Of a stretch of 64,000 bases of DNA, positions 1-59,806 are shown piece after piece. Source of the stretch: Phytophthora colocasiae (lineage: Eukaryota > Oomycota > Peronosporomycetes > Peronosporales > Peronosporaceae); contig JAGKQI010000095.1 of the NCBI GenBank assembly GCA_018806915.1, forward strand, positions 806,001 to 870,000, in the 5' to 3' direction. Position 1 is the first letter of the stretch. Every line of letters starts with the position of its first letter. Below the pieces are notes generated by a model. It ran no database searches, was not told the origin of the DNA, and saw only the letters and a program-made list of their open reading frames with translations. Both the position numbers and the translations under genes were made by a program.

Positions 1-3000
1 AGCCCTGCACACAGTGCTCATCCGAGGGTCACATTAACGTTGATGCGAGTGGGTCCCACTGCTGTGTGGTTCGTGGAACCGTTGGTAGCCTGGAAGGCTT
101 GCTCTGTGAATCACTGATCCAGTAGTATCATAGATACGCCACCTGTGGCCTTCTTCCCACGCCCGTAGAGCCCCTTGACTCGAGCCAGTAGGCTCATATG
201 CTTGGTAAGCATTGGGCCCAAGTGTGTGCCAAGTGGCATCGCGTACGGAGGCGTGAAACGCGCACGAGAGACAGCGCCGTCCACTCAAGGCAAGGTGCCG
301 TGGCCATCGGCCGATAATCGCGTCGTGTGTTTACACTTTCAGGATACGGTATCTGGAATCTTGGTGGGGGGGGGGAGTGTAACGGGGATGTTACACGAAT
401 GTTTCTCGTTGGTGTGTGACACACGTGGATACATTTATGTGGGTACATAAATGTAACGGATTTAGTATCTAGCATACTAAATCCTAATCAAAATGCAATG
501 TGTGGCTCTGAGCTTAACTGCCAGCAAATGGCTACATATGTGACGTGTGAGAATACAATGTGTCATACACAGATCTGTGACTTGTGCCTCCGGCCCGTGT
601 CTACCACACCAATGTAGCCATGGCACACCGTGCCGTGTAACCCCGTTACATTAGCTGTCTGGTGCTCGTTGTCGTGTCTACGACTGTGCTGAGCACGTGT
701 ATTCACAAGACACAGTGACACATAGTGGCGCTTGCGCTTGCTTCACGGGCAACTTGGGCATCAAGCCCTGCACAGTGCTCATCCGAGGGTCACATTAACG
801 TTGATGCGAGTGGGTCCCACTGCTGTGTGGTTCGTGGAACCGTTGGTAGCCTGGAAGGCTTGCTCTGTGAATCACTGATCCAGTAGTATCATAGATACGC
901 CACCTGTGGCCTTCTTCCCACGCCCGTAGAGCCCCTTGACTCGAGCCAGTAGGCTCATATGCTTGGTAAGCATTGGGCCCAAGTGTGTGCCAAGTGGCAT
1001 CGCGTACGGAGGCGTGAAACGCGCACGAGAGACAGCGCCGTCCACTCAAGGCAAGGTGCCGTGGCCATCGGCCGATAATCGCGTCGTGTGTTTACACTTT
1101 CAGGATACGGTATCTGGAATCTTGGTGGGGGGGTAACGGGGATGTTACACGAATGTTTCTCGTTGGTGTGTGACACACGTGGATACATTTATGTGGGTAC
1201 ATAAATGTAACGGATTTAGTATCTAGCATACTAAATCCTAATCAAATGCAATGTGTGGCTCTGAGCTTAACTGCCAGCAAATGGCTACATATGTGACGTG
1301 TGAGAATACAATGTGTCATACACAGATCTGTGACTTGTGCCTCCGGCCCGTGTCTACCACACCAATGTAGCCATGGCACACCGTGCCGTGTAACCCCGTT
1401 ACATTAGCTATCTGGTGCTCGTTGTCGTGTCTACGACTGTGCTGAGCACGTGCATTCACAAGACACAGTGACACATAGTGGCGCTTGCGCTTGCTTCACG
1501 GGCAACTTGGGCATCAAGCCCTGCACACAGTGCTCATCCGAGGGTCACATTAACGTTGATGCGAGTGGGTCCCACTGCTGTGTGGTTCGTGGAACCGTTG
1601 GTAGCCTGGAAGGCTTGCTCTGTGAATCACTGATCCAGTAGTATCATAGATACGCCACCTGTGGCCTTCTTCCCACGCCCGTAGAGCCCCTTGACTCGAG
1701 CCAGTAGGCTCATATGCTTGGTAAGCATTGGGCCCAAGTGTGTGCCAAGTGGCATCGCGTACGGAGGCGTGAAACGCGCACGAGAGACAGCGCCGTCCAC
1801 TCAAGGCAAGGTGCCGTGGCCATCGGCCGATAATCGCGTCGTGTGTTTACACTTTCAGGATACGGTATCTGGAATCTTGGTGGGGGGGAGTGTAACGGGG
1901 ATGTTACACGAATGTTTCTCGTTGGTGTGTGACACACGTGGATACATTTATGTGGGTACATAAATGTAACGGATTTAGTATCTAGCATACTAAATCCTAA
2001 TCAAAATGCAATGTGTGGCTCTGAGCTTAACTGCCAGCAAATGGCTACATATGTGACGTGTGAGAATACAATGTGTCATACACAGATCTGTGACTTGTGC
2101 CTCCGGCCCGTGTCTACCACACCAATGTAGCCATGGCACACCGTGCCGTGTAACCCCGTTACATTAGCTATCTGGTGCTCGTTGTCGTGTCTACGACTGT
2201 GCTGAGCACGTGTATTCACAAGACACAGTGATATGACAGTGGCGCTTGCGCTTGCTTCACGGGCAACTTGGGCATCAAGCCCTGCACACAGTGAGCTCAT
2301 CCGAGGGTCACATTAACGTTGATGCGAGTGGGTCCCACTGCTGTGTGGTTCGTGGAACCGTTGGTAGCCTGGAAGGCTTGCTCTGTGAATCACTGATCCA
2401 GTAGTATCATAGATACGCCACCTGTGGCCTTCTTCCCACGCCCGTAGAGCCCCTTGACTCGAGCCAGTAGGCTCATATGCTTGGTAAGCATTGGGCCCAA
2501 GTGTGTGCCAAGTGGCATCGCGTACGGAGGCGTGAAACGCGCACGAGAGACAGCGCCGTCCACTCAAGGCAAGGTGCCGTGGCCATCGGCCGATAATCGC
2601 GTCGTGTGTTTACACTTTCAGGATACGGTATCTGGAATCTTGGTGGGGAGGTAACGGGGATGTTTCTCGAATGTTTCTCGTTGGTGTGTGACACACGTGG
2701 ATACATTTATGTGGGTACATAAATGTAACGGATTTAGTATCTAGCATACTAAATCCTAATCAACATGCAATGTGTGGCTCTGAAGCTTAACTGCCAGCAA
2801 ATGGCTACATATGTGACGTGTGAGAATACAATGTGTCATACACAGATCTGTGACTTGTGCCTCCGGCCCGTGTCTACCACACCAATGTAGCCATGGCACA
2901 CCGTGCCGTGTAACCCCGTTACATTAGCTATCTGGTGCTCGTTGTCGTGTCTACGACTGTGCTGAGCACGTGTATTCACAAGACACAGTGACACATAGTG

Positions 3001-6000
3001 GCGCTTGCGCTTGCTTCACGGGCAACTTGGGCATCAAGCCCTGCACACAGTGCTCATCCGAGGGTCACATTAACGTTGATGCGAGTGGGTCCCACTGCTG
3101 TGTGGTTCGTGGAACCGTTGGTAGCCTGGAAGGCTTGCTCTGTGAATCACTGATCCAGTAGTATCATAGATACGCCACCTGTGGCCTTCTTCCCACGCCC
3201 GTAGAGCCCCTTGACTCGAGCCAGTAGGCTCATATGCTTGGTAAGCATTGGGCCCAAGTGTGTGCCAAGTGGCATCGCGTACGGAGGCGTGAAACGCGCA
3301 CGAGAGACAGCGCCGTCCACTCAAGGCAAGGTGCCGTGGCCATCGGCCGATAATCGCGTCGTGTGTTTACACTTTCAGGATACGGTATCTGGAATCTTGG
3401 TGGGGGGGGAGTGTAACGGGGATGTTACACGAATGTTTCTCGTTGGTGTGTGACACACGTGGATACATTTATGTGGGTACATAAATGTAACGGATTTAGT
3501 ATCTAGCATACTAAATCCTAATCAAAATGCAATGTGTGGCTCTGAGCTTAACTGCCAGCAAATGGCTACATATGTGACGTGTGAGAATACAATGTGTCAT
3601 ACACAGATCTGTGACTTGTGCCTCCGGCCCGTGTCTACCACACCAATGTAGCCATGGCACACCGTGCCGTGTAACCCCGTTACATTAGCTGTCTGGTGCT
3701 CGTTGTCGTGTCTACGACTGTGCTGAGCACGTGTATTCACAAGACACAGTGACACATAGTGGCGCTTGCGCTTGCTTCACGGGCAACTTGGGCATCAAGC
3801 CCTGCACACAGTGCTCATCCGAGGGTCACATTAACGTTGATGCGAGTGGGTCCCACTGCTGTGTGGTTCGTGGAACCGTTGGTAGCCTGGAAGGCTTGCT
3901 CTGTGAATCACTGATCCAGTAGTATCATAGATACGCCACCTGTGGCCTTCTTCCCACGCCCGTAGAGCCCCTTGACTCGAGCCAGTAGGCTCATATGCTT
4001 GGTAAGCATTGGGCCCAAGTGTGTGCCAAGTGGCATCGCGTACGGAGGCGTGAAACGCGCATCGAGAGACAGCGCCGTCCACTCAAGGCAAGGTGCCGTG
4101 GCCATCGGCCGATAATCGCGTCGTGTGTTTACACTTTCAGGATACGGTATCTGGAATCTTGGTGGGAGTGTAACGGGGATGTTACACGAATGTTTCTCGT
4201 TGGTGTGTGACACACGTGGATACATTTATGTGGTACATAAATGTAACGGATTTAGTATCTAGCATACTAAATCCCAATCAAAATGCAATGTGTGGCTCTG
4301 AGCTTAACTGCCAGCAAATGGCTACATATGTGACGTGTGAGAATACAATGTGTCATACACAGATTCTGTGACTTGTGCCTCCGGCCCGTGTCTACCACAC
4401 CAATGTAGCCATGGCACACCGTGCCGTGTAACCCCGTTACATTAGCTATCTGGTGCTCGTTGTCGTGTCTACGACTGTGCTGGAGCACGTGTATTCACAA
4501 GACACAGTGACACATAGTGGCGCTTGCGCTTGCTTCCACGGGCAACTTGGGCATCAAGCCCTGCACACAGTGCTCATCCGAGGGTCACATTAACGTTGAT
4601 GCGAGTGGGTCCCACTGCTGTGTGGTTCGTGGAACTGTTGGTAGCCTGGAAGGCTTGCTCTGTGAATCACTGATCCAGTAGTATCATAGATACGCCACCT
4701 GTGGCCTTCTTCCCACGCCCGTAGAGCCTCCTTGACTCGAGCCAGTAGGCTCATATGCTTGGTAAGCATTGGGCCCAAGTGTGTGCCAAGTGGCATCGCG
4801 TACGGAGGCGTGAAACGCGCACGAGAGACAGCGCCGTCCACTCAAGGCCAGGTGCCGTGGCCATCGGCCGATAATCGCGTCGTGTGTTTACACTTTCAGG
4901 ATACGGTATCTGGAATCTTGGTGGGAGTGTAACGGGGATGTTACACGAATGTTTCTCGTTGGTGTGTGACACACGTGGATACATTTATGTGGGTACATAA
5001 ATCGTAACGGATTTAGTATCTAGCATACTAAATCCTAATCAAAATGCAATGTGTGGCTCTGAGCTTAACTGCCAGCAAATGGCTACATATGTGACGTGTG
5101 AGAATACAATGTGTCATACACAGATTCTGTGACTTGTGCCTCCGGCCCGTGTCTACCACACCAATGTAGCCATGGCACACCGTGCCGTGTAACCCCCGTT
5201 ACATTAGCTGTCTGGTGCTCGTTGTCGTGTCTACGACTGTGCTGAGCACGTGTATTCACAAGACACAGTGACACATAGTGGCGCTTGCGCTTGCTTCACG
5301 GGCAACTTGGGCATCAAGCCCTGCACAGTGCTCATCCGAGGGTCACATTAACGTTGATGCGAGTGGGTCCCACTGCTGTGTGGTTCGTGGAACCGTTGGT
5401 AGCCTGGAAGGCTTGCTCTGTGAATCACTGATCCAGTAGTATCATAGATACGCCACCTGTGGCCTTCTTCCCACGCCCGTAGAGCCCCTTGACTCGAGCC
5501 AGTAGGCTCATATGCTTAGTAAGCATTGGGCCCAAGTGTGTGCCAAGTGGCATCGCGTACGGAGGCGTGAAACGCGCACGAGAGACAGCGCCGTCCACTC
5601 AAGGCAAGGTGCCGTGGCCATCGGCCGATAATCGCGTCGTGTGTTTACACTTTCAGGATACGGTATCTGGAATCTTGGTGGGGGGAGTGTAACGGGATGT
5701 TACACGAATGTTTCTCGTTGGTGTGTGACACGTGGATACATTTATGTGGGTACATAAATGTAACGGATTTAGTATCTAGCATACTAAATCCTAATCAAAA
5801 TGCAATGTGTGGCTCTGAGCTTAACTGCCAGCAAATGGCTACATATGTGACGTGTGAGAATACAATGTGTCATACACAGATCTGTGACTTGTGCCTCCGG
5901 CCCGTGTCTACCACACCAATGTAGCCATGGCACACCGTGCCGTGTAACCCCGTTACATTAGCTGTCTGGTGCTCGTTGTCGTGTCTACGACTGTGCTGAG

Positions 6001-9000
6001 CACGTGTATTCACAAGACACAGTGACACATAGTGGCGCTTGCGCTTGCTTCACGGGCAACTTGGGCATCAAGCCCTGCACACAGTGCTCATCCGAGGGTC
6101 ACATTAACGTTGATGCGAGTGGTCCCACTGCTGTGTGGTTCGTGGAACTGTTGGTAGCCTGGAAGGCTTGCTCTGTGAATCACTGATCCAGTAGTATCAT
6201 AGATACGCCACCTGTGGCCTTCTTCCCACGCCCGTAGAGCCCCTTGACTCGAGCCAGTAGGCTCATATGCTTGGTAAGCATTGGGCCCAAGTGTGTGCCA
6301 AGTGGCATCGCGTACGGAGGCGTGAAACGCGCACGAGAGACAGCGCCGTCCACTCAAGGCAAGGTGCCGTGGCCATCGGCCGATAATCGCGTCGTGTGTT
6401 TACACTTTCAGGATACGGTATCTGGAATCTTGGTGGGGCCGGGTAACGGGGATGTTACACGAATGTTTCTCGTTGGTGTGTGACACACGTGGATACATTT
6501 ATGTGGGTACATAAATGTAACGGATTTAGTATCTAGCATACTAAATCCTAATCAAAATGCAATGTGTGGCTCTGAGCTTAACTGCCAGCAAATGGCTACA
6601 TATGTGACGTGTGAGAATACAATGTGTCATACACAGATTCTGTGACTTGTGCCTCCGGCCCGTGTCTACCACACCAATGTAGCCATGGCACACCGTGCCG
6701 TGTAACCCCGTTACATTAGCTATCTGGTGCTCGTTGTCGTGTCTACGACTGTGCTGAGCACGTGTATTCACAAGACACAGTGACACATAGTGGCGCTTGC
6801 GCTTGCTTCACGGGCAACTTGGGCATCAAGCCCTGCACACAGTGCTCATCCGAGGGTCACATTAACGTTGATGCGAGTGGGTCCCACTGCTGTGTGGTTC
6901 GTGGAACCGTTGGTAGCCTGGAAGGCTTGCTCTGTGAATCACTGATCCAGTAGTATCATAGATACGCCACCTGTGGCCTTCTTCCCACGCCCGTAGAGCC
7001 CCTTGACTCGAGCCAGTAGGCTCATATGCTTGGTAAGCATTGGGCCCAAGTGTGTGCCAAGTGGCATCGCGTACGGAGGCGTGAAACGCGCACGAGAGAC
7101 AGCGCCGTCCACTCAAGGCAAGGTGCCGTGGCCATCGGCCGATAATCGCGTCGTGTGTTTACACTTTCAGGATACGGTATCTGGAATCTTGGTGGGGGAG
7201 TGTAACGGATGTGACACGAATGTTTCTCGTTGGTGTGTGACACACGTGGATACATTTATGTGGGTACATAAATGTAACGGATTTAGTATCTAGCATACTA
7301 AATCCTAATCAAAAATGCAATGTGTGGCTCTGAGCTTAACTGCCAGCAAATGGCTACATATGTGACGTGTGAGAATACAATGTGTCATACACAGATCTGT
7401 GACTTGTGCCTCCGGCCCGTGTCTACCACACCAATGTAGCCATGGCACACCGTGCCGTGTAACCCCGTTACATTAGCTATCTGGTGCTCGTTGTCGTGTC
7501 TACGACTGTGCTGAGCACGTGTATTCACAAGACACAGTGACACATAGTGGCGCTTGCGCTTGCTTCACGGGCAACTTGGGCATCAAGCCCTGCACACAGT
7601 GCTCATCCGAGGGTCACATTAACGTTGATGCGAGTGGGTCCCACTGCTGTGTGGTTCGTGGAACTGCTGGTAGCCTGGAAGGCTTGGTCTGTGAATCACT
7701 GATCCAGTAGTATCATAGATACGCCACCTGTGGCCTTCTTCCCACGCCCGGAGTGCCCCTTGACTCGAGCGAGTAGGCTCATATGCTGGGTCAGCATTGG
7801 GCCCAAGTGTGTAAGTGGCATCGCGTACGGAGGCGTGAAACGCGCACGAGTGACAGCGCAGTCCTCTCAAGGCACCGTCCCCTGGCCATCGGCCGATTCT
7901 CGCGTCGTGTGTTTACACTTTCAGGATACGGTATCTGGAATCTTGGTGGGGAGTGTAACGGGGATGTTACACGAATGTGTCTCGTTGGTGTGTGACACAC
8001 GTGGATACATTTATGTGGGTACATAAATGTAACGGATTTAGTATCTAGCATACTAAATCCTAATCAAAATGCAATGTGTGGCTCTGAGCTTAACTGCCAG
8101 CAAATGGCTACATATGTGACGTGTGAGAATACAATGTGTCATACACAGATCTGTGACTTGTGCCTCCGGCCCGTGTCTACCACACCAATGTAGCCATGGC
8201 ACACCGTGCCGTGTAACCCCGTTACATTAGCTATCTGGTGCTCGTTGTCGTGTCTACGACTGTGCTGGAGCACGTGTATTCACAAGACACAGTGACATTA
8301 CATAGTGGCGCTTGCGCTTGCTTCACGGGCAACTTGGGCATCAAGCCCTGCACACAGTGCTCATCCGAGGGTCACATTAACGTTGATGCGAGTGGGTCCC
8401 ACTGCTGTGTGGTTCGTGGAACTGCTGGTAGCCTGGAAGGCTTGCTCTGTGAATCACTGATCCAGTAGTATCATAGATACGCCACCTGTGGCCTTCTTCC
8501 CACGCCCGTAGAGCCCTTGACTCGAGCCAGTAGGCTCATATGCTTGCGCAAGCATTGGGCCCAAGTGTGTGCCAAGTGGCATCGCGTACGGAGGCGTGAA
8601 ACGCGCACGAGAGACAGCGCCGTCCACTCAAGGCAAGGTGCCGTGGCCATCGGCCGATAATCGCGTCGTGTGTTTACACTTTCAGGATACGGTATCTGGA
8701 ATCTTGGTGGGGGGGGAGTGTAACGGGGATGTTACACGAATGTTTCTCGTTGGTGTGTTACACACGTGGATACATTTATGTGGGTACATAAATGTAACGG
8801 ATTTAGTATCTAGCATACTAAATCCTAATCAAAATGCAATGTGTGGCTCTGAGCTTAACTGCCAGCAAATGGCTACATATGTGACGTGTGAGAATACAAT
8901 GTGCCATACACAGATCTGTGACTTGTGCCTCCGGCCCGTGTCTACCACACCAATGTAGCCATGGTACACCGTACCGTGTAACCCCGTTACATTAGCTGTC

Positions 9001-9754
9001 TGGTGCTCGTTGTCGTGTCTACGACTGTGCTGAGCACGTGTATTCACAAGACACAGTGACACATAGTGGCGCTTGCGCTTGCTTCACGGGCAACTTGGGC
9101 ATCAAGCCCTGCACACAGTGCTCATCCGAGGGTCACATTAACGTTGATGCGAGTGGGTCCCACTGCTGTGTGGTTCGTGGAACCGTTGGTAGCCTGGAAG
9201 GCTTGCTCTGTGAATCACTGATCCAGTAGTATCATAGATACGCCACCTGTGGCCTTCTTCCCACGCCCGTAGAGCCCTTGACTCGAGCCAGTAGGCTCAT
9301 ATGCTTGCAAGCATTGGGCCCAAGTGTGTGCCAAGTGGCATCGCGTACGGAGGCGTGAAACGCGCACGAGAGACAGCGCCGTCCACTCAAGGCAAGGTGC
9401 CGTGGCCATCGGCCGATAATCGCGTCGTGTGTTTACACTTTCAGGATACGGTATCTGGAATCTTGGTGGGGGGGGGGGAGTGTAACGGGGATGTTACACG
9501 AATGTTTCTCGTTGGTGTGTGACACACGTGGATACATTTATGTGGGTACATAAATGTAACGGATTTAGTATCTAGCATACTAAATCCTAATCAAAATGCA
9601 ATGTGTGGCTCTGAGCTTAACTGCCAGCAAATGGCTACATATGTGACGTGTGAGAATACAATGTGTCATACACAGATCTGTGACTTGTGCCTCCGGCCCG
9701 TGTCTACCACACCAATGTAGCCATGGCACACCGTGCCGTGTAACCCCGTTACAT
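1..9754 (+). repeat. Left tandem array of ~759-bp hairpin-rich units (~12.9 copies)
   Basis: Units repeat head to tail with a period of 755-763 bp; equivalent points fall at 34, 795, 1550, 2313, 3070, 3831, 4590, about 5345, about 6100, 6862, 7619, about 8380 and about 9140. The array enters the window in mid-unit and ends abruptly inside a unit at 9754. Copies are nearly identical except for a G-tract of variable length, scattered small indels, and one clearly diverged unit (about 7619-8380). The unit is packed with short perfect inverted repeats, the longest being two 11-bp stems (1943-1968 and 1971-1997 in the third unit). Short ORFs occur on both strands but overlap each other and are broken by indels, so I do not read them as genes. 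I know no named satellite that matches. It could be a structural satellite, a structured non-coding RNA array, or an expanded transposon-derived sequence. Confidence 0.97.
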
Positions 9755-9811
9755 CGTAGCTCGTCACCTATAGCACATACACGAACAACGTCAAGTACAC
9801 GTAGCACCGCA

Positions 9812-10120
9812 TCACACCATTCTTGCTGCCTCTCGTGAATGAGCCCTTGGGCCACCTGCAAGTAACGACCGGGAAGGAGCTACACGACGGTAGCGCCGAC
9901 GCGCGTGTTGTTCTCCGAAGAAGCATCGCGGGAAGGCTCTTACTATCTTGCCGTAGGTGCGCTTTAGACTTTCCATCCGAAGCCGGAGCTTCTTAGACGT
10001 CCGCGTCCCATGCATCTGCCGGGGTACATATGCCCATGTAACCCGCAGGCCTTCGTCCTCGAATTGGGCAGCAATCTGCACTAGTAGCTTGTCTTCTGCG
10101 TCTGAGAACGTAGTTCGCAT
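9812..10120 (-). pseudogene. SANT/Myb-like domain protein, 3' part cut off by the tandem array (left copy)
   Basis: The ORF of 102 residues starts at the ATG at 10118-10120. Residues ~1-65 resemble the SANT/Myb-like module found at the start of many oomycete proteins: acidic AEDKLL near residue 9, a helix ending in VTW, then a basic helix around LRMESLKRTYGK and the ending FPRCFF. The remaining 35 residues are arginine-rich, probably out of frame, and stop at 9812. Another frame (ending near 9765) stays open and reads into the array. The gene appears to have lost its C-terminal portion where the 759-bp array starts at 9754. Its inverted twin lies at 46300-46608, with Glu for Lys in the TSKK segment and Val for Gly in KRTYG. 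Role unknown; DNA or chromatin binding is only inferred from the fold. Confidence 0.5.
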
Positions 10121-10685
10121 TAGCCCAATATGTTAATAATAAATCCATGTACATATCTTACCTTTCTATTGGCGGGGGCAGGGGGGGGGATCCCAAATGA
10201 ACGGCAGAGAGACGATCAGACAGGATGATGAAGCTGCGCATCGATAAAAAAGGTCGTAGTTTATAAAACCGTAGCCGTAAGAAAACAAAGTGCAGTTATT
10301 GGTAGAAATTCTTTAAAGTACGTTTTTTTCTAAAAGGGCCTCTATGCGCCCTTCAATTTTTCGTACCTAAATAAAAACATACCCACCTGCACCGCAGAAG
10401 GGTTAAGACTGAATATATTAGATACTTGTTAGCCTGGTCTGCAATTCAAACTAAAAGATATCAATAGTGAAACCTAAATAGAGGAGCCATCTCACGTGTC
10501 ACCACGGTGTGTGGCACACCAAATGTATCCACTTCGGAAGAGTGACTAAGGTCGTTTCAGTGACGTACTTAACGAATATTCGCAGCAGCAGTTTTTAACG
10601 TTATTATTTTCATTGAGGTGGAAGTCAATGTGGCACACCTTCATCTCCGCTTAAATACGCTCGAAAATTCTCCCTCTTGTCTCTT
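10121..10685. other. Non-coding spacer between SANT-like gene and left CRN copy
   Basis: No convincing ORF is present. It holds a long G tract (around 10178-10188), several A/T-rich stretches, and a perfect hairpin at 10506-10520 (GGTGTG, 3-nt loop, CACACC) reminiscent of the stems in the flanking tandem units. The whole spacer is repeated in inverted form at about 45733-46299, so it belongs to the large inverted duplication. It should contain the upstream regions of two divergent genes. Confidence 0.7.
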
Positions 10686-10692: not shown

Positions 10693-10708
10693 ACCGGCTC
10701 GAGGAAAG

Positions 10709-45709: not shown

Positions 45710-45725
45710 CTTTCCTCGAGCCGGT

Positions 45726-46608: not shown

Positions 46609-46665
46609 TGCGGTGCTACGTGTACTTGACGTTGTTCGTGTATGTGCTATAGGTGACGAGCTACG

Positions 46666-49600
46666 ATGTAACGGGGTTACACGGCACGGTGTGCCATGGC
46701 TACATTGGTGTGGTAGACACGGGCCGGAGGCACAAGTCACAGATCTGTGTATGACACATTGTATTCTCACACGTCACATATGTAGCCATTTGCTGGCAGT
46801 TAAGCTCAGAGCCACACATTGCATTTTGATTAGGATTTAGTATGCTAGATACTAAATCCGTTACATTTATGTACCCACATAAATGTATCCACGTGTGTCA
46901 CACACCAACGAGAAACATTCGTGTAACATCCCCGTTACACTCCCCCCCACCAAGATTCCAGATACCGTATCCTGAAAGTGTAAACACACGACGCGATTAT
47001 CGGCCGATGGCCACGGCACCTTGCCTTGAGTGGACGGCGCTGTCTCTCGTGCGCGTTTCACGCCTCCGTACGCGATGCCACTTGGCACACACTTGGGCCC
47101 AATGCTTACCAAGCATATGAGCCTACTGGCTCGAGTCAAGGGGCTCTACGGGCGTGGGAAGAAGGCCACAGGTGGCGTATCTATGATACTACTGGATCAG
47201 TGATTCACAGAGCAAGCCTTCCAGGCTACCAACGGTTCCACGAACCACACAGCAGTGGGACCCACTCGCATCAACGTTAATGTGACCCTCGGATGAGCAC
47301 TGTGTGCAGGGCTTGATGCCCAAGTTGCCCGTGAAGCAAGCGCAAGCGCCACTATGTGTCACTGTGTCTTGTGAATACACGTGCTCAGCACAGTCGTAGA
47401 CACGACAACGAGCACCAGACAGCTAATGTAACGGGGTTACACGGCACGGTGTGCCATGGCTACATTGGTGTGGTAGACACGGGCCGGAGGCACAAGTCAC
47501 AGATCTGTGTATGACACATTGTATTCTCACACGTCACATATGTAGCCATTTGCTGGCAGTTAAGCTCAGAGCCACACATTGCATTTTGATTAGGATTTAG
47601 TATGCTAGATACTAAATCCGTTACATTTATGTACCCACATAAATGTATCCACGTGTGTCACACACCAACGAGAAACATTCGTGTAACATCCCCGTTACAC
47701 CCCCCCCCCCACCAAGATTCCAGATACCGTATCCTGAAAGTGTAAACACACGACGCGATTATCGGCCGATGGCCACGGCACCTTGCCTTGAGTGGACGGC
47801 GCTGTCTCTCGTGCGCGTTTCACGCCTCCGTACGCGATGCCACTTGGCACACACTTGGGCCCAATGCTTACCAAGCATATGAGCCTACTGGCTCGAGTCA
47901 AGGGGCTCTACGGGCGTGGGAAGAAGGCCACAGGTGGCGTATCTATGATACTACTGGATCAGTGATTCACAGAGCAAGCCTTCCAGGCTACCAACGGTTC
48001 CACGAACCACACAGCAGTGGGACCCACTCGCATCAACGTTAATGTGACCCTCGGATGAGCACTGTGTGCAGGGCTTGATGCCCAAGTTGCCCGTGAAGCA
48101 AGCGCAAGCGCCACTATGTGTCACTGTGTCTTGTGAATACACGTGCTCAGCACAGTCGTAGACACGACAACGAGCACCAGACAGCTAATGTAACGGGGTT
48201 ACACGGCACGGTGTGCCATGGCTACATTGGTGTGGTAGACACGGGCCGGAGGCACAAGTCACAGATCTGTGTATGACACATTGTATTCTCACACGTCACA
48301 TATGTAGCCATTTGCTGGCAGTTAAGCTCAGAGCCACACATTGCATTTTGATTAGGATTTAGTATGCTAGATACTAAATCCGTTACATTTATGTACCCAC
48401 ATAAATGTATCCACGTGTGTCACACACCAACGAGAAACATTCGTGTAACATCCCCGTTACACTCCCCCCCCCCCACCAAGATTCCAGATACCGTATCCTG
48501 AAAGTGTAAACACACGACGCGATTATCGGCCGATGGCCACGGCACCTTGCCTTGAGTGGACGGCGCTGTCTCTCGTGCGCGTTTCACGCCTCCGTACGCG
48601 ATGCCACTTGGCACACACTTGGGCCCAATGCTTACCAAGCATATGAGCCTACTGGCTCGAGTCAAGGGGCTCTACGGGCGTGGGAAGAAGGCCACAGGTG
48701 GCGTATCTATGATACTACTGGATCAGTGATTCACAGAGCAAGCCTTCCAGGCTACCAACGGTTCCACGAACCACACAGCAGTGGGACCCACTCGCATCAA
48801 CGTTAATGTGACCCTCGGATGAGCACTGTGTGCAGGGCTTGATGCCCAAGTTGCCCGTGAAGCAAGCGCAAGCGCCACTATGTGTCACTGTGTCTTGTGA
48901 ATACACGTGCTCCAGCACAGTCGTAGACACGACAACGAGCACCAGACAGCTAATGTAACGGGGTTACACGGCACGGTGTGCCATGGCTACATTGGTGTGG
49001 TAGACACGGGCCGGAGGCACAAGTCACAGAATCTGTGTATGACACATTGTATTCTCACACGTCACATATGTAGCCATTTGCTGGCAGTTAAGCTCAGAGC
49101 CACACATTGCATTTTGATTAGGATTTAGTATGCTAGATACTAAATCCGTTACATTTATGTACCCACATAAATGTATCCACGTGTGTCACACACCAACGAG
49201 AAACATTCGTGTAACATCCCCGTTACACTCCCCCCCCACCAAGATTCCAGATACCGTATCCTGAAAGTGTAAACACACGACGCGATTATCGGCCGATGGC
49301 CACGGCACCTTGCCTTGAGTGGACGGCGCTGTCTCTCGTGCGCGTTTCACGCCTCCGTACGCGATGCCACTTGGCACACACTTGGGCCCAATGCTTACCA
49401 AGCATATGAGCCTACTGGCTCGAGTCAAGGGGCTCTACGGGCGTGGGAAGAAGGCCACAGGTGGCGTATCTATGATACTACTGGATCAGTGATTCACAGA
49501 GCAAGCCTTCCAGGCTACCAACGGTTCCACGAACCACACAGCAGTGGGACCCACTCGCATCAACGTTAATGTGACCCTCGGATGAGCACTGTGTGCAGGG

Positions 49601-52600
49601 CTTGATGCCCAAGTTGCCCGTGAAGCAAGCGCAAGCGCCACTATGTGTCACTGTGTCTTGTGAATACACGTGCTCAGCACAGTCGTAGACACGACAACGA
49701 GCACCAGACAGCTAATGTAACGGGGTTACACGGCACGGTGTGCCATGGCTACATTGGTGTGGTAGACACGGGCCGGAGGCACAAGTCACAGATCTGTGTA
49801 TGACACATTGTATTCTCACACGTCACATATGTAGCCATTTGCTGGCAGTTAAGCTCAGAGCCACACATTGCATTTTGATTAGGATTTAGTATGCTAGATA
49901 CTAAATCCGTTACATTTATGTACCCACATAAATGTATCCACGTGTGTCACACACCAACGAGAAACATTCGTGTAACATCCCCGTTACACTCCCCCCCCCC
50001 ACCAAGATTCCAGATACCGTATCCTGAAAGTGTAAACACACGACGCGATTATCGGCCGATGGCCACGGCACCTTGCCTTGAGTGGACGGCGCTGTCTCTC
50101 GTGCGCGTTTCACGCCTCCGTACGCGATGCCACTTGGCACACACTTGGGCCCAATGCTTACCAAGCATATGAGCCTACTGGCTCGAGTCAAGGGGCTCTA
50201 CGGGCGTGGGAAGAAGGCCACAGGTGGCGTATCTATGATACTACTGGATCAGTGATTCACAGAGCAAGCCTTCCAGGCTACCAACGGTTCCACGAACCAC
50301 ACAGCAGTGGGACCCACTCGCATCAACGTTAATGTGACCCTCGGATGAGCACTGTGTGCAGGGCTTGATGCCCAAGTTGCCCGTGAAGCAAGCGCAAGCG
50401 CCACTATGTGTCACTGTGTCTTGTGAATACACGTGCTCAGCACAGTCGTAGACACGACAACGAGCACCAGACAGCTAATGTAACGGGGTTACACGGCACG
50501 GTGTGCCATGGCTACATTGGTGTGGTAGACACGGGCCGGAGGCACAAGTCACAGATCTGTGTATGACACATTGTATTCTCACACGTCACATATGTAGCCA
50601 TTTGCTGGCAGTTAAGCTCAGAGCCACACATTGCATTTTGATTAGGATTTAGTATGCTAGATACTAAATCCGTTACATTTATGTACCCACATAAATGTAT
50701 CCACGTGTGTCACACACCAACGAGAAACATTCGTGTAACATCCCCGTTACACTCCCCCACCAAGATTCCAGATACCGTATCCTGAAAGTGTAAACACACG
50801 ACGCGATTATCGGCCGATGGCCACGGCACCTTGCCTTGAGTGGACGGCGCTGTCTCTCGTGCGCGTTTCACGCCTCCGTACGCGATGCCACTTGGCACAC
50901 ACTTGGGCCCAATGCTTACCAAGCATATGAGCCTACTGGCTCGAGTCAAGGGGCTCTACGGGCGTGGGAAGAAGGCCACAGGTGGCGTATCTATGATACT
51001 ACTGGATCAGTGATTCACAGAGCAAGCCTTCCAGGCTACCAACGGTTCCACGAACCACACAGCAGTGGGACCCACTCGCATCAACGTTAATGTGACCCTC
51101 GGATGAGCACTGTGTGCAGGGCTTGATGCCCAAGTTGCCCGTGAAGCAAGCGCAAGCGCCACTATGTGTCACTGTGTCTTGTGAATACACGTGCTCAGCA
51201 CAGTCGTAGACACGACAACGAGCACCAGACAGCTAATGTAACGGGGTTACACGGCACGGTGTGCCATGGCTACATTGGTGTGGTAGACACGGGCCGGAGG
51301 CACAAGTCACAGATCTGTGTATGACACATTGTATTCTCACACGTCACATATGTAGCCATTTGCTGGCAGTTAAGCTCAGAGCCACACATTGCATTTTGAT
51401 TAGGATTTAGTATGCTAGATACTAAATCCGTTACATTTATGTACCCACATAAATGTATCCACGTGTGTCACACACCAACGAGAAACATTCGTGTAACATC
51501 CCCGTTACACTCCCCCCCCCACCAAGATTCCAGATACCGTATCCTGAAAGTGTAAACACACGACGCGATTATCGGCCGATGGCCACGGCACCTTGCCTTG
51601 AGTGGACGGCGCTGTCTCTCGTGCGCGTTTCACGCCTCCGTACGCGATGCCACTTGGCACACACTTGGGCCCAATGCTTACCAAGCATATGAGCCTACTG
51701 GCTCGAGTCAAGGGGCTCTACGGGCGTGGGAAGAAGGCCACAGGTGGCGTATCTATGATACTACTGGATCAGTGATTCACAGAGCAAGCCTTCCAGGCTA
51801 CCAACGGTTCCACGAACCACACAGCAGTGGGACCCACTCGCATCAACGTTAATGTGACCCTCGGATGAGCACTGTGTGCAGGGCTTGATGCCCAAGTTGC
51901 CCGTGAAGCAAGCGCAAGCGCCACTATGTGTCACTGTGTCTTGTGAATACACGTGCTCAGCACAGTCGTAGACACGACAACGAGCACCAGACAGCTAATG
52001 TAACGGGGTTACACGGCACGGTGTGCCATGGCTACATTGGTGTGGTAGACACGGGCCGGAGGCACAAGTCACAGATCTGTGTATGACACATTGTATTCTC
52101 ACACGTCACATATGTAGCCATTTGCTGGCAGTTAAGCTCAGAGCCACACATTGCATTTTGATTAGGATTTAGTATGCTAGATACTAAATCCGTTACATTT
52201 ATGTACCCACATAAATGTATCCACGTGTGTCACACACCAACGAGAAACATTCGTGTAACATCCCCGTTACACTCCCCCCCCCCACCAAGATTCCAGATAC
52301 CGTATCCTGAAAGTGTAAACACACGACGCGATTATCGGCCGATGGCCACGGCACCTTGCCTTGAGTGGACGGCGCTGTCTCTCGTGCGCGTTTCACGCCT
52401 CCGTACGCGATGCCACTTGGCACACACTTGGGCCCAATGCTTACCAAGCATATGAGCCTACTGGCTCGAGTCAAGGGGCTCTACGGGCGTGGGAAGAAGG
52501 CCACAGGTGGCGTATCTATGATACTACTGGATCAGTGATTCACAGAGCAAGCCTTCCAGGCTACCAACGGTTCCACGAACCACACAGCAGTGGGACCCAC

Positions 52601-55600
52601 TCGCATCAACGTTAATGTGACCCTCGGATGAGCACTGTGTGCAGGGCTTGATGCCCAAGTTGCCCGTGAAGCAAGCGCAAGCGCCACTATGTGTCACTGT
52701 GTCTTGTGAATACACGTGCTCAGCACAGTCGTAGACACGACAACGAGCACCAGACAGCTAATGTAACGGGGTTACACGGCACGGTGTGCCATGGCTACAT
52801 TGGTGTGGTAGACACGGGCCGGAGGCACAAGTCACAGATCTGTGTATGACACATTGTATTCTCACACGTCACATATGTAGCCATTTGCTGGCAGTTAAGC
52901 TCAGAGCCACACATTGCATTTTGATTAGGATTTAGTATGCTAGATACTAAATCCGTTACATTTATGTACCCACATAAATGTATCCACGTGTGTCACACAC
53001 CAACGAGAAACATTCGTGTAACACCCCGTTACACCCCCCCCCCCCCACCAAGATTCCAGATACCGTATCCTGAAAGTGTAAACACACGACGCGATTATCG
53101 GCCGATGGCCACGGCACCTTGCCTTGAGTGGACGGCGCTGTCTCTCGTGCGCGTTTCACGCCTCCGTACGCGATGCCACTTGGCACACACTTGGGCCCAA
53201 TGCTTACCAAGCATATGAGCCTACTGGCTCGAGTCAAGGGGCTCTACGGGCGTGGGAAGAAGGCCACAGGTGGCGTATCTATGATACTACTGGATCAGTG
53301 ATTCACAGAGCAAGCCTTCCAGGCTACCAACGGTTCCACGAACCACACAGCAGTGGGACCCACTCGCATCAACGTTAATGTGACCCTCGGATGAGCACTG
53401 TGTGCAGGGCTTGATGCCCAAGTTGCCCGTGAAGCAAGCGCAAGCGCCACTATGTGTCACTGTGTCTTGTGAATACACGTGCTCAGCACAGTCGTAGACA
53501 CGACAACGAGCACCAGACAGCTAATGTAACGGGGTTACACGGCACGGTGTGCCATGGCTACATTGGTGTGGTAGACACGGGCCGGAGGCACAAGTCACAG
53601 ATCTGTGTATGACACATTGTATTCTCACACGTCACATATGTAGCCATTTGCTGGCAGTTAAGCTCAGAGCCACACATTGCATTTTGATTAGGATTTAGTA
53701 TGCTAGATACTAAATCCGTTACATTTATGTACCCACATAAATGTATCCACGTGTGTCACACACCAACGAGAAACATTCGTGTAACATCCCCGTTACACTC
53801 CCCCCCCCCACCAAGATTCCAGATACCGTATCCTGAAAGTGTAAACACACGACGCGATTATCGGCCGATGGCCACGGCACCTTGCCTTGAGTGGACGGCG
53901 CTGTCTCTCGTGCGCGTTTCACGCCTCCGTACGCGATGCCACTTGGCACACACTTGGGCCCAATGCTTCCCACGCATATGAGCCTACTGGCTCGAGTCAA
54001 GGGGCTCTACGGGCGTGGGAAGAAGGCCACAGGTGGCGTATCTATGATACTACTGGATCAGTGATTCACAGAGCAAGCCTTCCAGGCTACCAACGGTTCC
54101 ACGAACCACACAGCAGTGGGACCCACTCGCATCAACGTTAATGTGACCCTCGGATGAGCACTGTGTGCAGGGCTTGATGCCCAAGTTGCCCGTGAAGCAA
54201 GCGCAAGCGCCACTATGTGTCACTGTGTCTTGTGAATACACGTGCTCAGCACAGTCGTAGACACGACAACGAGCACCAGACAGCTAATGTAACGGGGTTA
54301 CACGGCACGGTGTGCCATGGCTACATTGGTGTGGTAGACACGGGCCGGAGGCACAAGTCACAGATCTGTGTATGACACATTGTATTCTCACACGTCACAT
54401 ATGTAGCCATTTGCTGGCAGTTAAGCTCAGAGCCACACATTGCATTTTGATTAGGATTTAGTATGCTAGATACTAAATCCGTTACATTTATGTACCCACA
54501 TAAATGTATCCACGTGTGTCACACACCAACGAGAAACATTCGTGTAACATCCCCGTTACACCCCCACCAAGATTCCAGATACCGTATCCTGAAAGTGTAA
54601 ACACACGACGCGATTATCGGCCGATGGCCACGGCACCTTGCCTTGAGTGGACGGCGCTGTCTCTCGTGCGCGTTTCACGCCTCCGTACGCGATGCCACTT
54701 GGCACACACTTGGGCCCAATGCTTACTAAGCATATGAGCCTACTGGCTCGAGTCAAGGGGCTCTACGGGCGTGGGAAGAAGGCCACAGGTGGCGTATCTA
54801 TGATACTACTGGATCAGTGATTCACAGAGCAAGCCTTCCAGGCTACCAACGGTTCCACGAACCACACAGCAGTGGGACCCACTCGCATCAACGTTAATGT
54901 GACCCTCGGATGAGCACTGTGTGCAGGGCTTGATGCCCAAGTTGCCCGTGAAGCAAGCGCAAGCGCCACTATGTGTCACTGTGTCTTGTGAATACACGTG
55001 CTCAGCACAGTCGTAGACACGACAACGAGCACCAGACAGCTAATGTAACGGGGTTACACGGCACGGTGTGCCATGGCTACATTGGTGTGGTAGACACGGG
55101 CCGGAGGCACAAGTCACAGATCTGTGTATGACACATTGTATTCTCACACGTCACATATGTAGCCATTTGCTGGCAGTTAAGCTCAGAGCCACACATTGCA
55201 TTTTGATTAGGATTTAGTATGCTAGATACTAAATCCGTTACATTTATGTACCCACATAAATGTATCCACGTGTGTCACACACCAACGAGAAACATTCGTG
55301 TAACATCCCCGTTACACTCCCACCAAGATTCCAGATACCGTATCCTGAAAGTGTAAACACACGACGCGATTATCGGCCGATGGCCACGGCACCTTGCCTT
55401 GAGTGGACGGCGCTGTCTCTCGTGCGCGTTTCACGCCTCCGTACGCGATGCCACTTGGCACACACTTGGGCCCAATGCTTACCAAGCATATGAGCCTACT
55501 GGCTCGAGTCAAGGGGCTCTACGGGCGTGGGAAGAAGGCCACAGGTGGCGTATCTATGATACTACTGGATCAGTGATTCACAGAGCAAGCCTTCCAGGCT

Positions 55601-58600
55601 ACCAACGGTTCCACGAACCACACAGCAGTGGGACCCACTCGCATCAACGTTAATGTGACCCTCGGATGAGCACTGTGTGCAGGGCTTGATGCCCAAGTTG
55701 CCCGTGAAGCAAGCGCAAGCGCCACTATGTGTCACTGTGTCTTGTGAATACACGTGCTCAGCACAGTCGTAGACACGACAACGAGCACCAGACAGCTAAT
55801 GTAACGGGGTTACACGGCACGGTGTGCCATGGCTACATTGGTGTGGTAGACACGGGCCGGAGGCACAAGTCACAGATCTGTGTATGACACATTGTATTCT
55901 CACACGTCACATATGTAGCCATTTGCTGGCAGTTAAGCTCAGAGCCACACATTGCATTTTGATTAGGATTTAGTATGCTAGATACTAAATCCGTTACATT
56001 TATGTACCCACATAAATGTATCCACGTGTGTCACACACCAACGAGAAACATTCGTGTAACATCCCCGTTACACTCCCCACCAAGATTCCAGATACCGTAT
56101 CCTGAAAGTGTAAACACACGACGCGATTATCGGCCGATGGCCACGGCACCTTGCCTTGAGTGGACGGCGCTGTCTCTCGTGCGCGTTTCACGCCTCCGTA
56201 CGCGATGCCACTTGGCACACACTTGGGCCCAATGCTTACCAAGCATATGAGCCTACTGGCTCGAGTCAAGGGCTCTACGGGCGTGGGAAGAAGGCCACAG
56301 GTGGCGTATCTATGATACTACTGGATCAGTGATTCACAGAGCAAGCCTTCCAGGCTACCAACGGTTCCACGAACCACACAGCAGTGGGACCCACTCGCAT
56401 CAACGTTAATGTGACCCTCGGATGAGCACTGTGTGCAGGGCTTGATGCCCAAGTTGCCCGTGAAGCAAGCGCAAGCGCCACTATGTGTCACTGTGTCTTG
56501 TGAATACACGTGCTCAGCACAGTCGTAGACACGACAACGAGCACCAGACAGCTAATGTAACGGGGTTACACGGCACGGTGTGCCATGGCTACATTGGTGT
56601 GGTAGACACGGGCCGGAGGCACAAGTCACAGATCTGTGTATGACACATTGTATTCTCACACGTCACATATGTAGCCATTTGCTGGCAGTTAAGCTCAGAG
56701 CCACACATTGCATTTTGATTAGGATTTAGTATGCTAGATACTAAATCCGTTACATTTATGTACCCACATAAATGTATCCACGTGTGTCACACACCAACGA
56801 GAAACATTCGTGTAACATCCCCGTTACACTCCCCCCCCCCCACCAAGATTCCAGATACCGTATCCTGAAAGTGTAAACACACGACGCGATTATCGGCCGA
56901 TGGCCACGGCACCTTGCCTTGAGTGGACGGCGCTGTCTCTCGTGCGCGTTTCACGCCTCCGTACGCGATGCCACTTGGCACACACTTGGGCCCAATGCTT
57001 ACCAAGCATATGAGCCTACTGGCTCGAGTCAAGGGGCTCTACGGGCGTGGGAAGAAGGCCACAGGTGGCGTATCTATGATACTACTGGATCAGTGATTCA
57101 CAGAGCAAGCCTTCCAGGCTACCAACGGTTCCACGAACCACACAGCAGTGGGACCCACTCGCATCAACGTTAATGTGACCCTCGGATGAGCACTGTGTGC
57201 AGGGCTTGATGCCCAAGTTGCCCGTGAAGCAAGCGCAAGCGCCACTATGTGTCACTGTGTCTTGTGAATACACGTGCTCAGCACAGTCGTAGACACGACA
57301 ACGAGCACCAGACAGCTAATGTAACGGGGTTACACGGCACGGTGTGCCATGGCTACATTGGTGTGGTAGACACGGGCCGGAGGCACAAGTCACAGATCTG
57401 TGTATGACACATTGTATTCTCACACGTCACATATGTAGCCATTTGCTGGCAGTTAAGCTCAGAGCCACACATTGCATTTTGATTAGGATTTAGTATGCTA
57501 GATACTAAATCCGTTACATTTATGTACCCATATAAATGTATCCACGTGTGTCACACACCAACGAGAAACATTCGTGTAACATCCCCGTTACACTCCCCCC
57601 CCCACCAAGATTCCAGATACCGTATCCTGAAAGTGTAAACACACGACGCGATTATCGGCCGATGGCCACGGCACCTTGCCTTGAGTGGACGGCGCTGTCT
57701 CTCGTGCGCGTTTCACGCCTCCGTACGCGATGCCACTTGGCACACACTTGGGCCCAATGCTTACCAAGCATATGAGCCTACTGGCTCGAGTCAAGGGGCT
57801 CTACGGGCGTGGGAAGAAGGCCACAGGTGGCGTATCTATGATACTACTGGATCAGTGATTCACAGAGCAAGCCTTCCAGGCTACCAACGGTTCCACGAAC
57901 CACACAGCAGTGGGACCCACTCGCATCAACGTTAATGTGACCCTCGGATGAGCACTGTGTGCAGGGCTTGATGCCCAAGTTGCCCGTGAAGCAAGCGCAA
58001 GCGCCACTATGTGTCACTGTGTCTTGTGAATACACGTGCTCAGCACAGTCGTAGACACGACAACGAGCACCAGACAGCTAATGTAACGGGGTTACACGGC
58101 ACGGTGTGCCATGGCTACATTGGTGTGGTAGACACGGGCCGGAGGCACAAGTCACAGATCTGTGTATGACACATTGTATTCTCCCACGTCACATATGTAG
58201 CCATTTGCTGGCAGTTAAGCTCAGAGCCACACATTGCATTTTTGATTAGGATTTAGTATGCTAGATACTAAATCCGTTACATTTATGTACCCATATAAAT
58301 GTATCCACGTGTCACACACCAACGAGAAACATTCGTGTAACATCCCCGTTACACTCCCCCCCCCACCAAGATTCCAGATACCGTATCCTGAAAGTGTAAA
58401 CACACGACGCGATTATCGGCCGATGGCCACGGCACCTTGCCTTGAGTGGACGGCGCTGTCTCTCGTGCGCGTTTCACGCCTCCGTACGCGATGCCACTTG
58501 GCACACACTTGGGCCCAATGCTTACCAAGCATATGAGCCTACTGGCTCGAGTCAAGGGGCTCTACGGGCGTGGGAAGAAGGCCACAGGTGGCGTATCTAT

Positions 58601-59806
58601 GATACTACTGGATCAGTGATTCACAGAGCAAGCCTTCCAGGCTACCAACGGTTCCACGAACCACACAGCAGTGGGACCCACTCGCATCAACGTTAATGTG
58701 ACCCTCGGATGAGCACTGTGTGCAGGGCTTGATGCCCAAGTTGCCCGTGAAGCAAGCGCAAGCGCCACTATGTGTCACTGTGTCTTGTGAATACACGTGC
58801 TCAGCACAGTCGTAGACACGACAACGAGCACCAGACAGCTAATGTAACGGGGTTACACGGCACGGTGTGCCATGGCTACATTGGTGTGGTAGACACGGGC
58901 CGGAGGCACAAGTCACAGATCTGTGTATGACACATTGTATTCTCCCACGTCACATATGTAGCCATTTGCTGGCAGTTAAGCTCAGAGCCACACATTGCAT
59001 TTTGATTAGGATTTAGTATGCTAGATACTAAATCCGTTACATTTATGTACCCATATAAATGTATCCACGTGTGTCACACACCAACGAGAAACATTCGTGT
59101 AACATCCCCGTTACACTCCCCCCCCCACCAAGATTCCAGATACCGTATCCTGAAAGTGTAAACACACGACGCGATTATCGGCCGATGGCCACGGCACCTT
59201 GCCTTGAGTGGACGGCGCTGTCTCTCGTGCGCGTTTCACGCCTCCGTACGCGATGCCACTTGGCACACACTTGGGCCCAATGCTTACCAAGCATATGAGC
59301 CTACTGGCTCGAGTCAAGGGGCTCTACGGGCGTGGGAAGAAGGCCACAGGTGGCGTATCTATGATACTACTGGATCAGTGATTCACAGAGCAAGCCTTCC
59401 AGGCTACCAACGGTTCCACGAACCACACAGCAGTGGGACCCACTCGCATCAACGTTAATGTGACCCTCGGATGAGCACTGTGTGCAGGGCTTGATGCCCA
59501 AGTTGCCCGTGAAGCAAGCGCAAGCGCCACTATGTGTCACTGTGTCTTGTGAATACACGTGCTCAGCACAGTCGTAGACACGACAACGAGCACCAGACAG
59601 CTAATGTAACGGGGTTACACGGCACGGTGTGCCATGGCTACATTGGTGTGGTAGACACGGGCCGGAGGCACAAGTCACAGATCTGTGTATGACACATTGT
59701 ATTCTCACACGTCACATATGTAGCCATTTGCTGGCAGTTAAGCTCAGAGCCACACATTGCATTTTGATTAGGATTTAGTATGTTAGATACTAAATCCGTT
59801 ACATTT
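46666..59806 (-). repeat. Right tandem array of ~759-bp hairpin-rich units (~17.3 copies), inverted
   Basis: Same unit as the left array, in the opposite orientation; equivalent points at 47026, 47788, 48552, 49315, 50078, 50836, 51598, 52361, 53124, 53887, about 54643, 55399, about 56160, 56919, 57681, 58442 and 59204. Copies here are more uniform than on the left. Differences include the C-tract length (3 to 11 or so), CACAGAATCTGTG for CACAGATCTGTG at about 49025, a shortened loop near 53025, and shared variants among 57530, 58290 and 59050 (ATAT for ACAT), which shows local homogenisation. The array ends at the retroelement junction near 59806. Confidence 0.97.

What the first reader, a model, noticed from the sequence alone, without database searches (positions are those of the whole stretch)
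1564..2212. The 759-bp satellite unit is tiled with perfect short hairpins
In the unit at 1550-2310 I find 20 inverted repeats with perfect stems of at least 5 bp and loops of 0-6 nt: 1564-1576, 1584-1596, 1603-1615, 1641-1653, 1654-1665, 1698-1711, 1714-1728, 1728-1737, 1743-1754, 1822-1831, 1859-1869, 1890-1909, 1925-1937, 1943-1968, 1971-1997, 2081-2092, 2135-2147, 2149-2163, 2184-2197 and 2199-2209. My rough estimate for random sequence is about five; for stems of 6 bp or more it is about 1.3 against eight seen, and two stems are 11 bp. No protein in the unit is credible. This suggests selection for structure (RNA or cruciform DNA) or a hairpin-making mutation process. I know of no described satellite like this.
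Basis: partly seen in the sequence, partly recalled or inferred. Interest (0 to 1): 0.88.

Follow-up and report, generated by a model that had tools for sequence, protein, structure and literature searches.

The report
Retrotransposons tiled with perfect hairpins
The hairpin-covered satellite is a rearranged scrap of a jumping gene whose whole length, protein-coding parts included, is tiled with short perfect hairpins that selection appears to keep.

Summary
Observation confirmed: all 20 hairpins exist. The unit holds 19 non-overlapping stems against 4.4 in dinucleotide shuffles; 0 of 2000 shuffles reach 19.

The satellite is not the source. It is a rearranged piece (3'UTR, purine tract, LTR start) of a Ty3/gypsy chromodomain retrotransposon, family 1. 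In the 7.17-kb copy used as reference, LTR, ORFs and UTRs all carry about 14-16 hairpins per 500 bp; background is about 3. A related family 2 is more extreme: a 1618-codon ORF holds 59 perfect stems of at least 9 bp, against 0.7 after synonymous shuffling. Three related copies and a Copia region are nearly untiled.

Changes shared by two or more copies avoid stems (family 2: 20/2360 stem, 96/3092 spacer, 47/693 loop sites; family 1: 102/2324 against 318/4231). Private changes in family 1 do not (112/2324 against 216/4231). G·U is not favoured over A·C, so sense-RNA folding alone does not explain it.

Best reading: selection during retrotransposition for hairpins that fold in both strands, perhaps against small-RNA silencing (inferred). 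Template switching is the main rival.

The parts
1..9761 (+). Satellite array, left; continues at least 10 kb beyond the window start (L018 is satellite throughout)
   Evidence: blastn of the unit to the window, units 95.9-100% identical over full-length matches; L018
1550..2308 (+). The 759-bp unit examined
1564..2212 (+).
1550..1890 (+). Unit 1-341: 3'UTR sequence of the family-1 retrotransposon, ending in a purine-rich tract (1879-1890, like a polypurine tract; recognised from memory)
   Evidence: 94% to el 6828-7170
1891..1963 (+). Unit 342-414: first 73 bp of the family-1 LTR
   Evidence: 100% to el 1-73
1961..2025 (-). Unit 412-476: LTR segment, inverted relative to the retrotransposon
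2026..2163 (.). Unit 477-614: found outside the arrays only at C22:4039359-4039559 (88%, as part of 412-614) among the listed matches; origin not settled
2164..2308 (+). Unit 615-759: 3'UTR sequence of family 1
   Evidence: 90% to el 6676-6823
46659..59807 (-). Satellite array, right, opposite orientation
59743..61819 (+). Family-1 retrotransposon fragment (LTR right part and 5' internal part), also hairpin-tiled (9-15 per 500 bp)
   Evidence: 90.4% to el 148-2285; density

Best explanation
SHOWN: the satellite is an amplified, rearranged 3'UTR/LTR piece of a Ty3/gypsy chromodomain retrotransposon, and its hairpins are mostly inherited. Two related families in this oomycete-like genome are tiled along their length, coding sequence included, with short perfect Watson-Crick hairpins: family 1 mostly with 5-6 bp stems and 3-5 nt loops, family 2 often with 8-11 bp stems, both about one per 34-35 nt. 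SHOWN STATISTICALLY: stems change less than spacers and loops in the changes that copies share, and much less so (family 1, family-2 noncoding: not at all) in private changes; so a force acts on stems while the lineage replicates. I take it to be selection (about 0.75). INFERRED: since G·U on the sense strand is no better tolerated than A·C, what is kept are hairpins able to fold in both polarities (genomic RNA and antisense RNA or minus-strand cDNA). INFERRED, weakest step (about 0.35): the benefit is protection from homology-dependent silencing, because neither the target nor small RNAs of either strand stay open for pairing and sense-antisense duplexes form poorly. How tiling first arose is not known; point mutations kept by selection fit the gains and losses seen.
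For: Tiling of the whole reference copy and of ORFs beyond synonymous shuffles. Excess confined to hairpins a single strand can form: loop >=3, >=4-5 bp. Shared changes avoid stems: family 2 20/2360 against 96/3092, also at third codon positions (8/654 against 34/792) and outside the main ORF (4/415 against 31/699); family 1 102/2324 against 318/4231. Private changes: family 1 equal, family 2 outside the main ORF equal (15/415 against 26/699). Noncoding unit-to-element comparison: stems 3/167, spacers 24/350, p 0.018. Subfamilies 5-9% apart share more hairpins than neutral simulation. Double changes at pairs mostly keep pairing. Small RNAs of both orientations along two Gypsy elements in P. 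infestans (PMC3522703, passages).
Against: No expression, small-RNA or probing data. One genome only; no other oomycete DNA could be searched. Private changes in family 2 still avoid stems overall (93/2360 against 168/3092, p 0.01) and at third codon positions (29/654 against 79/792), so 'unprotected after insertion' holds cleanly only for family 1 and for family-2 noncoding sequence; many private changes may predate insertion. Subfamily group C shows no four-fold-site constraint (3/66 stem, 0/107 spacer), nor does the L016 3'UTR (11/293 against 18/564). Several double changes lie in internal repeats (el 2134-2533, f2 1746-1940) where misaligned repeats could mimic compensation. Loop inversions show that template switching does occur. 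Small RNAs do map to Gypsy elements in P. infestans, so silencing is not simply absent there; whether those elements are tiled is unknown.
Confidence: 0.55

Rival explanations
1. Template switching during reverse transcription (or host replication) makes and maintains the hairpins: the growing strand folds back and copies one arm into the other. Families differ because their reverse transcriptases differ.
For: Strict Watson-Crick pairing without G·U preference. At one 10-bp hairpin of family 2 (f2 4010) two loop pairs are exact reverse complements; 4 of 26 multi-change loop pairs are reverse complements (2 of these equally plain complements), 0 plain reversals. [quoted passage not shown]
Against: Of 271 hairpin gains or losses compared (pairwise, not independent), 180 are one change in one arm and only 2 are three or more changes confined to one arm. 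Family 1 shows no loop inversion among 29 multi-change loop pairs. Arm copying alone does not predict slower stems in noncoding sequence. Density is as high in coding as in noncoding parts.
Confidence: 0.25
2. Selection for folding of the sense genomic RNA only (packaging, compaction or RNA stability), as in genome-scale ordered RNA structure of viruses.
For: Sense-strand folding is stronger than shuffled everywhere in family 2 on average (z -3.85 per 120 nt); stems conserved.
Against: Antisense folds at least as far beyond its own shuffles (z -4.67; paired difference 0.82+-0.21; family 1 -1.63 and -1.90). G·U is not favoured: near-perfect stems GT 1.7x, AC 1.5x; family-2 one-mismatch stems GT 12, AC 21; lineage-level stem changes GT 26, AC 28 and GT 6, AC 5. 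G·U share of predicted pairs is below shuffled.
Confidence: 0.12
3. The satellite itself is selected for hairpins, for example as a centromeric or transcribed structural repeat.
For: High hairpin density; 40 of 40 scored matches to the array-specific stretch lie on one contig, C81 (788 candidates).
Against: 12 of 14 testable hairpins are inherited from the retrotransposon; distinct variants per site do not avoid stems in 40 units. No Rfam match.
Confidence: 0.04

Closest known systems
Ty3/gypsy chromoviruses of Phytophthora and downy mildews
   Same: Protease, RT, RNase H, integrase and chromodomain matches (family 2; family 1 RNase H, integrase, chromodomain in the broken reference copy); pol relatives at 54-86% identity among the best 120 of 1600 hits, in P. 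cactorum, P. ramorum, P. infestans, P. sojae, Peronosclerospora and others
   Different: Hairpin tiling of the whole element; whether the named relatives are tiled is unknown because only their proteins were available
[quoted passage not shown]
   Same: Folding beyond chance along the entire genome, coding included; suggested shielding from host recognition (PMC9784701, passages)
   Different: Short perfect stems, strand-symmetric, no G·U preference, in an LTR retrotransposon
Satellites derived from LTR retrotransposons (known kind, recalled)
   Same: Tandem unit derived from LTR and 3'UTR
   Different: Includes an inverted LTR segment; carries inherited hairpins
Hairpins made or kept by template switching
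   Same: Perfect stems, compensated pairs, some loop inversions
   Different: Gains and losses mostly single changes; genome-long tiling confined to certain element families

Membership tests
Ty3/gypsy chromovirus (source element) | RT-RNase H-integrase order | tested here: met
   Family 2 ORF: RVP_2, RVT_1, RT_RNaseH, Integrase_H2C2, rve in this order. Family 1 reference copy: RT_RNaseH, Integrase_H2C2, rve
Ty3/gypsy chromovirus (source element) | Chromodomain at the 3' end of pol | tested here: met
   PF00385 in family 1 and family 2 (in the next ORF)
Ty3/gypsy chromovirus (source element) | LTRs | tested here: met
   Family 1: two direct copies 7.17 kb apart, repeated stretch ends together. 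Family-2 LTRs not mapped
Genome-scale ordered RNA structure | Folding energy beyond shuffled along the whole genome | tested here: met
   Mean z per 120 nt -1.63 (family 1), -3.85 (family 2)
Genome-scale ordered RNA structure | Sense-RNA structure, with G·U tolerated | tested here: not met
   GT no commoner than AC; antisense z at least as strong
Non-autonomous short LTR element (TRIM) as the satellite unit | Complete LTRs with internal primer-binding site and purine tract | tested here: not met
   Unit has only the first 73 bp of the family-1 LTR in normal orientation; primer-binding site not tested
Retrozyme or other ribozyme satellite | Self-cleaving ribozyme motif | tested here: not met
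   No Rfam match up to E 5 in window 1-12000
Template-switch hairpins | Multi-base one-arm copying of the other arm | tested here: not met
   2 of 271 gains or losses
Template-switch hairpins | Loop (spacer) inversion | tested here: inconclusive
   Family 2: 4 of 26 multi-change loop pairs (2 ambiguous); family 1: 0 of 29
Centromeric satellite | Centromeric histone occupancy | not testable with these tools
   No chromatin data

The most novel reading that the evidence does not exclude
Some LTR retrotransposons have evolved a genome-long armour of perfect, strand-symmetric hairpins with a family-specific stem length (about 5 bp in one family, about 9 bp in another), written into their protein-coding sequence and kept by selection, so that neither their RNA, their antisense RNA nor their cDNA offers an open stretch to small-RNA guides: silencing resistance by structure.
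Probability: 0.35. Interest if true: 0.95.

Novelty: new variant of a known kind. Interest (0 to 1): 0.86.

Why it matters
A 1618-codon retrotransposon reading frame holding 59 perfect stems of at least 9 bp, where codon choice alone predicts under one, is a coding constraint that none of my ten library searches turned up. If selection keeps it, it makes a general question testable: can mobile elements escape RNA silencing by structure alone, and at what cost to codon choice? If a reverse transcriptase makes it, it is a hairpin-writing polymerase. Either way it gives a computable signature (hairpin density against synonymous shuffles) to look for in other genomes, and warns that hairpin-rich satellites may inherit structure from transposons.

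Tried and rejected
Chance: rejected. Satellite-specific selection: not needed, since the parent element is equally tiled. Ribozyme or known RNA family: no match in window 1-12000, the only stretch searched. Codon usage or composition: rejected by synonymous, codon-order and dinucleotide shuffles and synonymous and dinucleotide shuffles. Genome-wide host mutation process: background is near expectation (loop 3 1.49x, other loops 0.96-1.28x over 16 stretches; loop 3 was 92 against 46 in seven loci), and family-1 private changes ignore stems. A trait of all retroelements: rejected (window gypsy 1-6 per 500 bp; L029-L031 mean 4.3-4.7; Copia region 3-7). Shared recognition sequence: inner stem 5-mers are mostly different. 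Regular spacing: family 2 slightly more regular than random placement (CV 0.371, null 0.437+-0.031), family 1 less regular (0.697, null 0.591+-0.041). Single origin of tiling: unresolved, support 51/0. DNA relatives elsewhere: none in viral contigs or genome contigs with the pol query, none for the unit in plasmids; other oomycete genomes are not held, so cross-species conservation was not tested. Host species not named; an oomycete is inferred from the Crinkler match and Phytophthora relatives.

Rows left out of counts, and limits: one search scored 36 of 946 candidates, 75 of 5959, 70 of 5434, 50 of 5266, 40 of 788. One search used alignments of at least 600 bp and not the window's own family-1 fragment; pieces of at least 1100 alignment columns, substitutions only in the simulation. 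One search used alignments of at least 400 bp and 90% identity (so two L013 pieces under 90% were dropped). One search used pieces of at least 600 bp from L008, L014-L016, L034-L036 (at most 96.6% identity) and L033, L037-L041; L013 was not given to it, and hairpins crossing gaps were dropped. The sums 180 and 271 were added by hand from its table. Double-change counts count copies, not events; by site, family 2 has 6 pairs with a double change, 5 of them paired in the copy. The 10 background loci (L019-L028) were chosen at arbitrary coordinates.

Full report
Observation. Dinucleotide shuffles give 4.4+-1.9 and none of 2000 reaches 19; stems of 6 bp or more number 8 against 1.2. Both satellite arrays of the window have this density (8-14 per 500 bp). 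Between and beyond them 500-bp windows hold 0-7, except a stretch after the right array with 9-15 that is a fragment of the parent element. Shuffled sequence gives about 3.

What the satellite is. In the window's own genome (G000, 92.5 Mb, 105 contigs) the 36 scored candidates outside the arrays (of 946) match unit 1-414 at 95-96%, usually preceded by 615-759 and followed by 412-476 in inverted orientation. In the C44 copy this block lies 3' of a Ty3/gypsy polyprotein ending in a chromodomain, and the seven loci L002-L008 and L001 align to the same 3' part of that element. On C44 the element recurs at a 7.17-kb period, 99.7% identical. The unit is 3'UTR, a purine-rich tract, the first 73 bp of the LTR, an inverted LTR segment, and a stretch of unsettled origin. 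Matches to the array-specific stretch were all on contig C81 (40 scored of 788). Of the 19 unit hairpins, 14 lie in element-homologous sequence and 12 of these are hairpins in the element. Among 40 array units, distinct variants per site do not avoid stems (15/228 stem, 39/482 spacer); counted per copy, stems look lower (20/9120 against 185/19247), which a few common variants could cause. So the satellite mostly inherited its hairpins.

The element itself is tiled. The family-1 reference copy (el, 7170 bp) has 211 non-overlapping hairpins. Density per 500 bp is 15.4 in the LTR, 16.1 in the 5' internal part, 14.4 in an upstream ORF without Pfam match, 14.7 in the RNase H-integrase ORF, 14.9 in integrase-chromodomain and 13.9 in the 3'UTR. 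In the two 1734-bp ORFs, 50 and 51 hairpins compare with 13.5 and 13.1 after shuffling synonymous codons (maxima of 300 shuffles: 22 and 24). Ten arbitrary background loci average 2.5-4.2. By loop length the excess is 12.6x at loop 3, 2.3x at loop 6 and small beyond. By stem length at loop 3 it is 1.0x for 3 bp, 3.2x for 4 bp, 11x for 5 bp. Stems written with loop 1 or 0 behave as if their inner pairs were lost. What is enriched is thus a hairpin that a single strand can physically form.

A second, stronger family. A related family (L032, L033, L037-L041) has, in L032, a 1618-codon ORF with protease, RT, RNase H and integrase domains, followed by a chromodomain ORF. Its halves hold 36 and 23 perfect stems of at least 9 bp; synonymous shuffles give 0.4 and 0.3. 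Over 6.3 kb there are 89 stems of 8 bp or more, and 120 of 187 centre-to-centre distances fall in 24-40 nt. Mean folding z per 120 nt is -3.85 sense and -4.67 antisense; family 1 gives -1.63 and -1.90; L029, L030, the window gypsy and one background locus give -0.73 to +0.13 sense. L029-L031, at a similar DNA distance, have means of 4.3-4.7 per 500 bp, and a Copia region 3-7. A pol tree does not settle whether tiling arose once (51/0). Hairpin positions coincide only weakly between the two families (7 of 38 within 1 nt; null 3.0+-1.7, max 8).

Evidence that something maintains the stems. Between family-1 copies 5-9% apart more hairpins are shared than after neutral simulation (39 against 21.5+-2.9; 34 against 21.0+-3.1; 77 against 62.7+-4.0). 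Copies under 2% apart match the simulation, and an old degraded copy (L013) falls below it. Double changes at paired sites keep Watson-Crick pairing in 18 of 23 (family 1, 90-96.5% identity, 3.8 doubles expected; none in young copies or in pieces under 90%) and in 12 of 13 (family 2, about 1.3 expected). These count copies, not events, and several lie in internal repeats where misalignment could mimic compensation; the changes at el 2860 and 5158 do not. The sharpest test separates changes seen in two or more copies from those in one. Family 2, shared: 20/2360 stem, 96/3092 spacer, 47/693 loop sites (p 3e-9); third codon positions 8/654 against 34/792; outside the main ORF 4/415 against 31/699. 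Family 2, private: 93/2360 against 168/3092 (p 0.01), still avoiding stems at third positions (29/654 against 79/792) but not outside the main ORF (15/415 against 26/699, p 1). The shared-to-private ratio differs between stem and spacer (p 0.00025). Family 1: shared 102/2324 against 318/4231 (p 5e-7); private 112/2324 against 216/4231 (p 0.64). 'Private' only approximates post-insertion change. Weaker or contrary results: subfamily group C has no four-fold-site constraint (3/66 against 0/107), although pooled groups do (12/215 against 43/392, p 0.027); the L016 3'UTR shows none (11/293 against 18/564).

Which nucleic acid? If sense RNA alone were selected, G·U should be tolerated over A·C. It is not: near-perfect stems GT 1.7x, AC 1.5x; family-2 one-mismatch stems GT 12, AC 21; lineage-level stem changes 26 against 28 and 6 against 5. 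Predicted pairs in family 2 have about half the shuffled G·U share on both strands. The structure is strand-symmetric, which suggests folding in both polarities or a process that sees only Watson-Crick copies.

Mechanism. I favour selection during retrotransposition for hairpins that form in both RNA polarities, or in RNA and cDNA. The most plausible benefit is shielding from small-RNA silencing; small RNAs of both orientations are reported along two Gypsy elements in P. infestans (PMC3522703, passages). This last step is inference, and the fact that small RNAs are made there also shows that silencing reaches such elements. The main rival, template switching, explains strict pairing and a few loop inversions (precedents PMC8604942 passages, and PMC8794818 abstract and start of introduction). 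It predicts one-arm multi-base copying, seen in 2 of 271 gains or losses while 180 are single changes, and it does not by itself predict slower stems in noncoding sequence.

Known or new. The element is a Ty3/gypsy chromovirus by domains and LTRs. It resembles genome-scale ordered RNA structure (PMC9784701, passages) in pervasive folding but fails the sense-strand wobble test. Ten library searches listed no title or abstract start describing a hairpin-tiled retrotransposon; the library lacks most subscription journals and preprints. Other oomycete genomes were not available as DNA.

Noticed in passing
9001-13335 and 43069-47417: Inverted duplication, 98.4% over 4.36 kb, that includes the inner ends of both satellite arrays and a Crinkler-effector-like ORF (Pfam Crinkler on 44198-45709; the other copy, 10734-11723, has no Pfam match). 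Described only.
   Followed up: partly
19232-20673 and 33849-35333: Direct repeats, 96.2% over 1489 bp, flanking an untiled gypsy element (24-31 kb); they contain 23-bp and 30-bp tandem repeats. Probably long LTRs of a 16-kb element.
   Followed up: partly
36305-40086: The two halves of a copper amine oxidase domain (39049-40086 and 36305-37018, minus strand) are separated by FLYWCH and MULE transposase matches on the plus strand, so a MULE seems to interrupt the gene.
   Followed up: no
C81:563087-581000, 768706-774992, 788297-814326 of G000: Further satellite stretches in both orientations on the window's contig, suggesting repeated inversion or inverted duplication of the arrays.
   Followed up: no
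L032 reverse strand 4010-4032 (f2): A 10-bp hairpin whose 3-nt loop occurs as TGC, GCA, GCT and AGC in different copies: two reverse-complement pairs.
   Followed up: partly
L010:1200-5500 and L028: Excess of loop-0 palindromes (18 against 4.4 and 27 against 10 expected) without the loop-3 excess of the tiled families; unexplained. L010 holds a repeat next to a family-1 copy.
   Followed up: no
C44:921501-932441 and C31:802304-810178 of G000: Family-1 elements in tandem at a 7.17-kb period, as if neighbouring copies share an LTR.
   Followed up: partly
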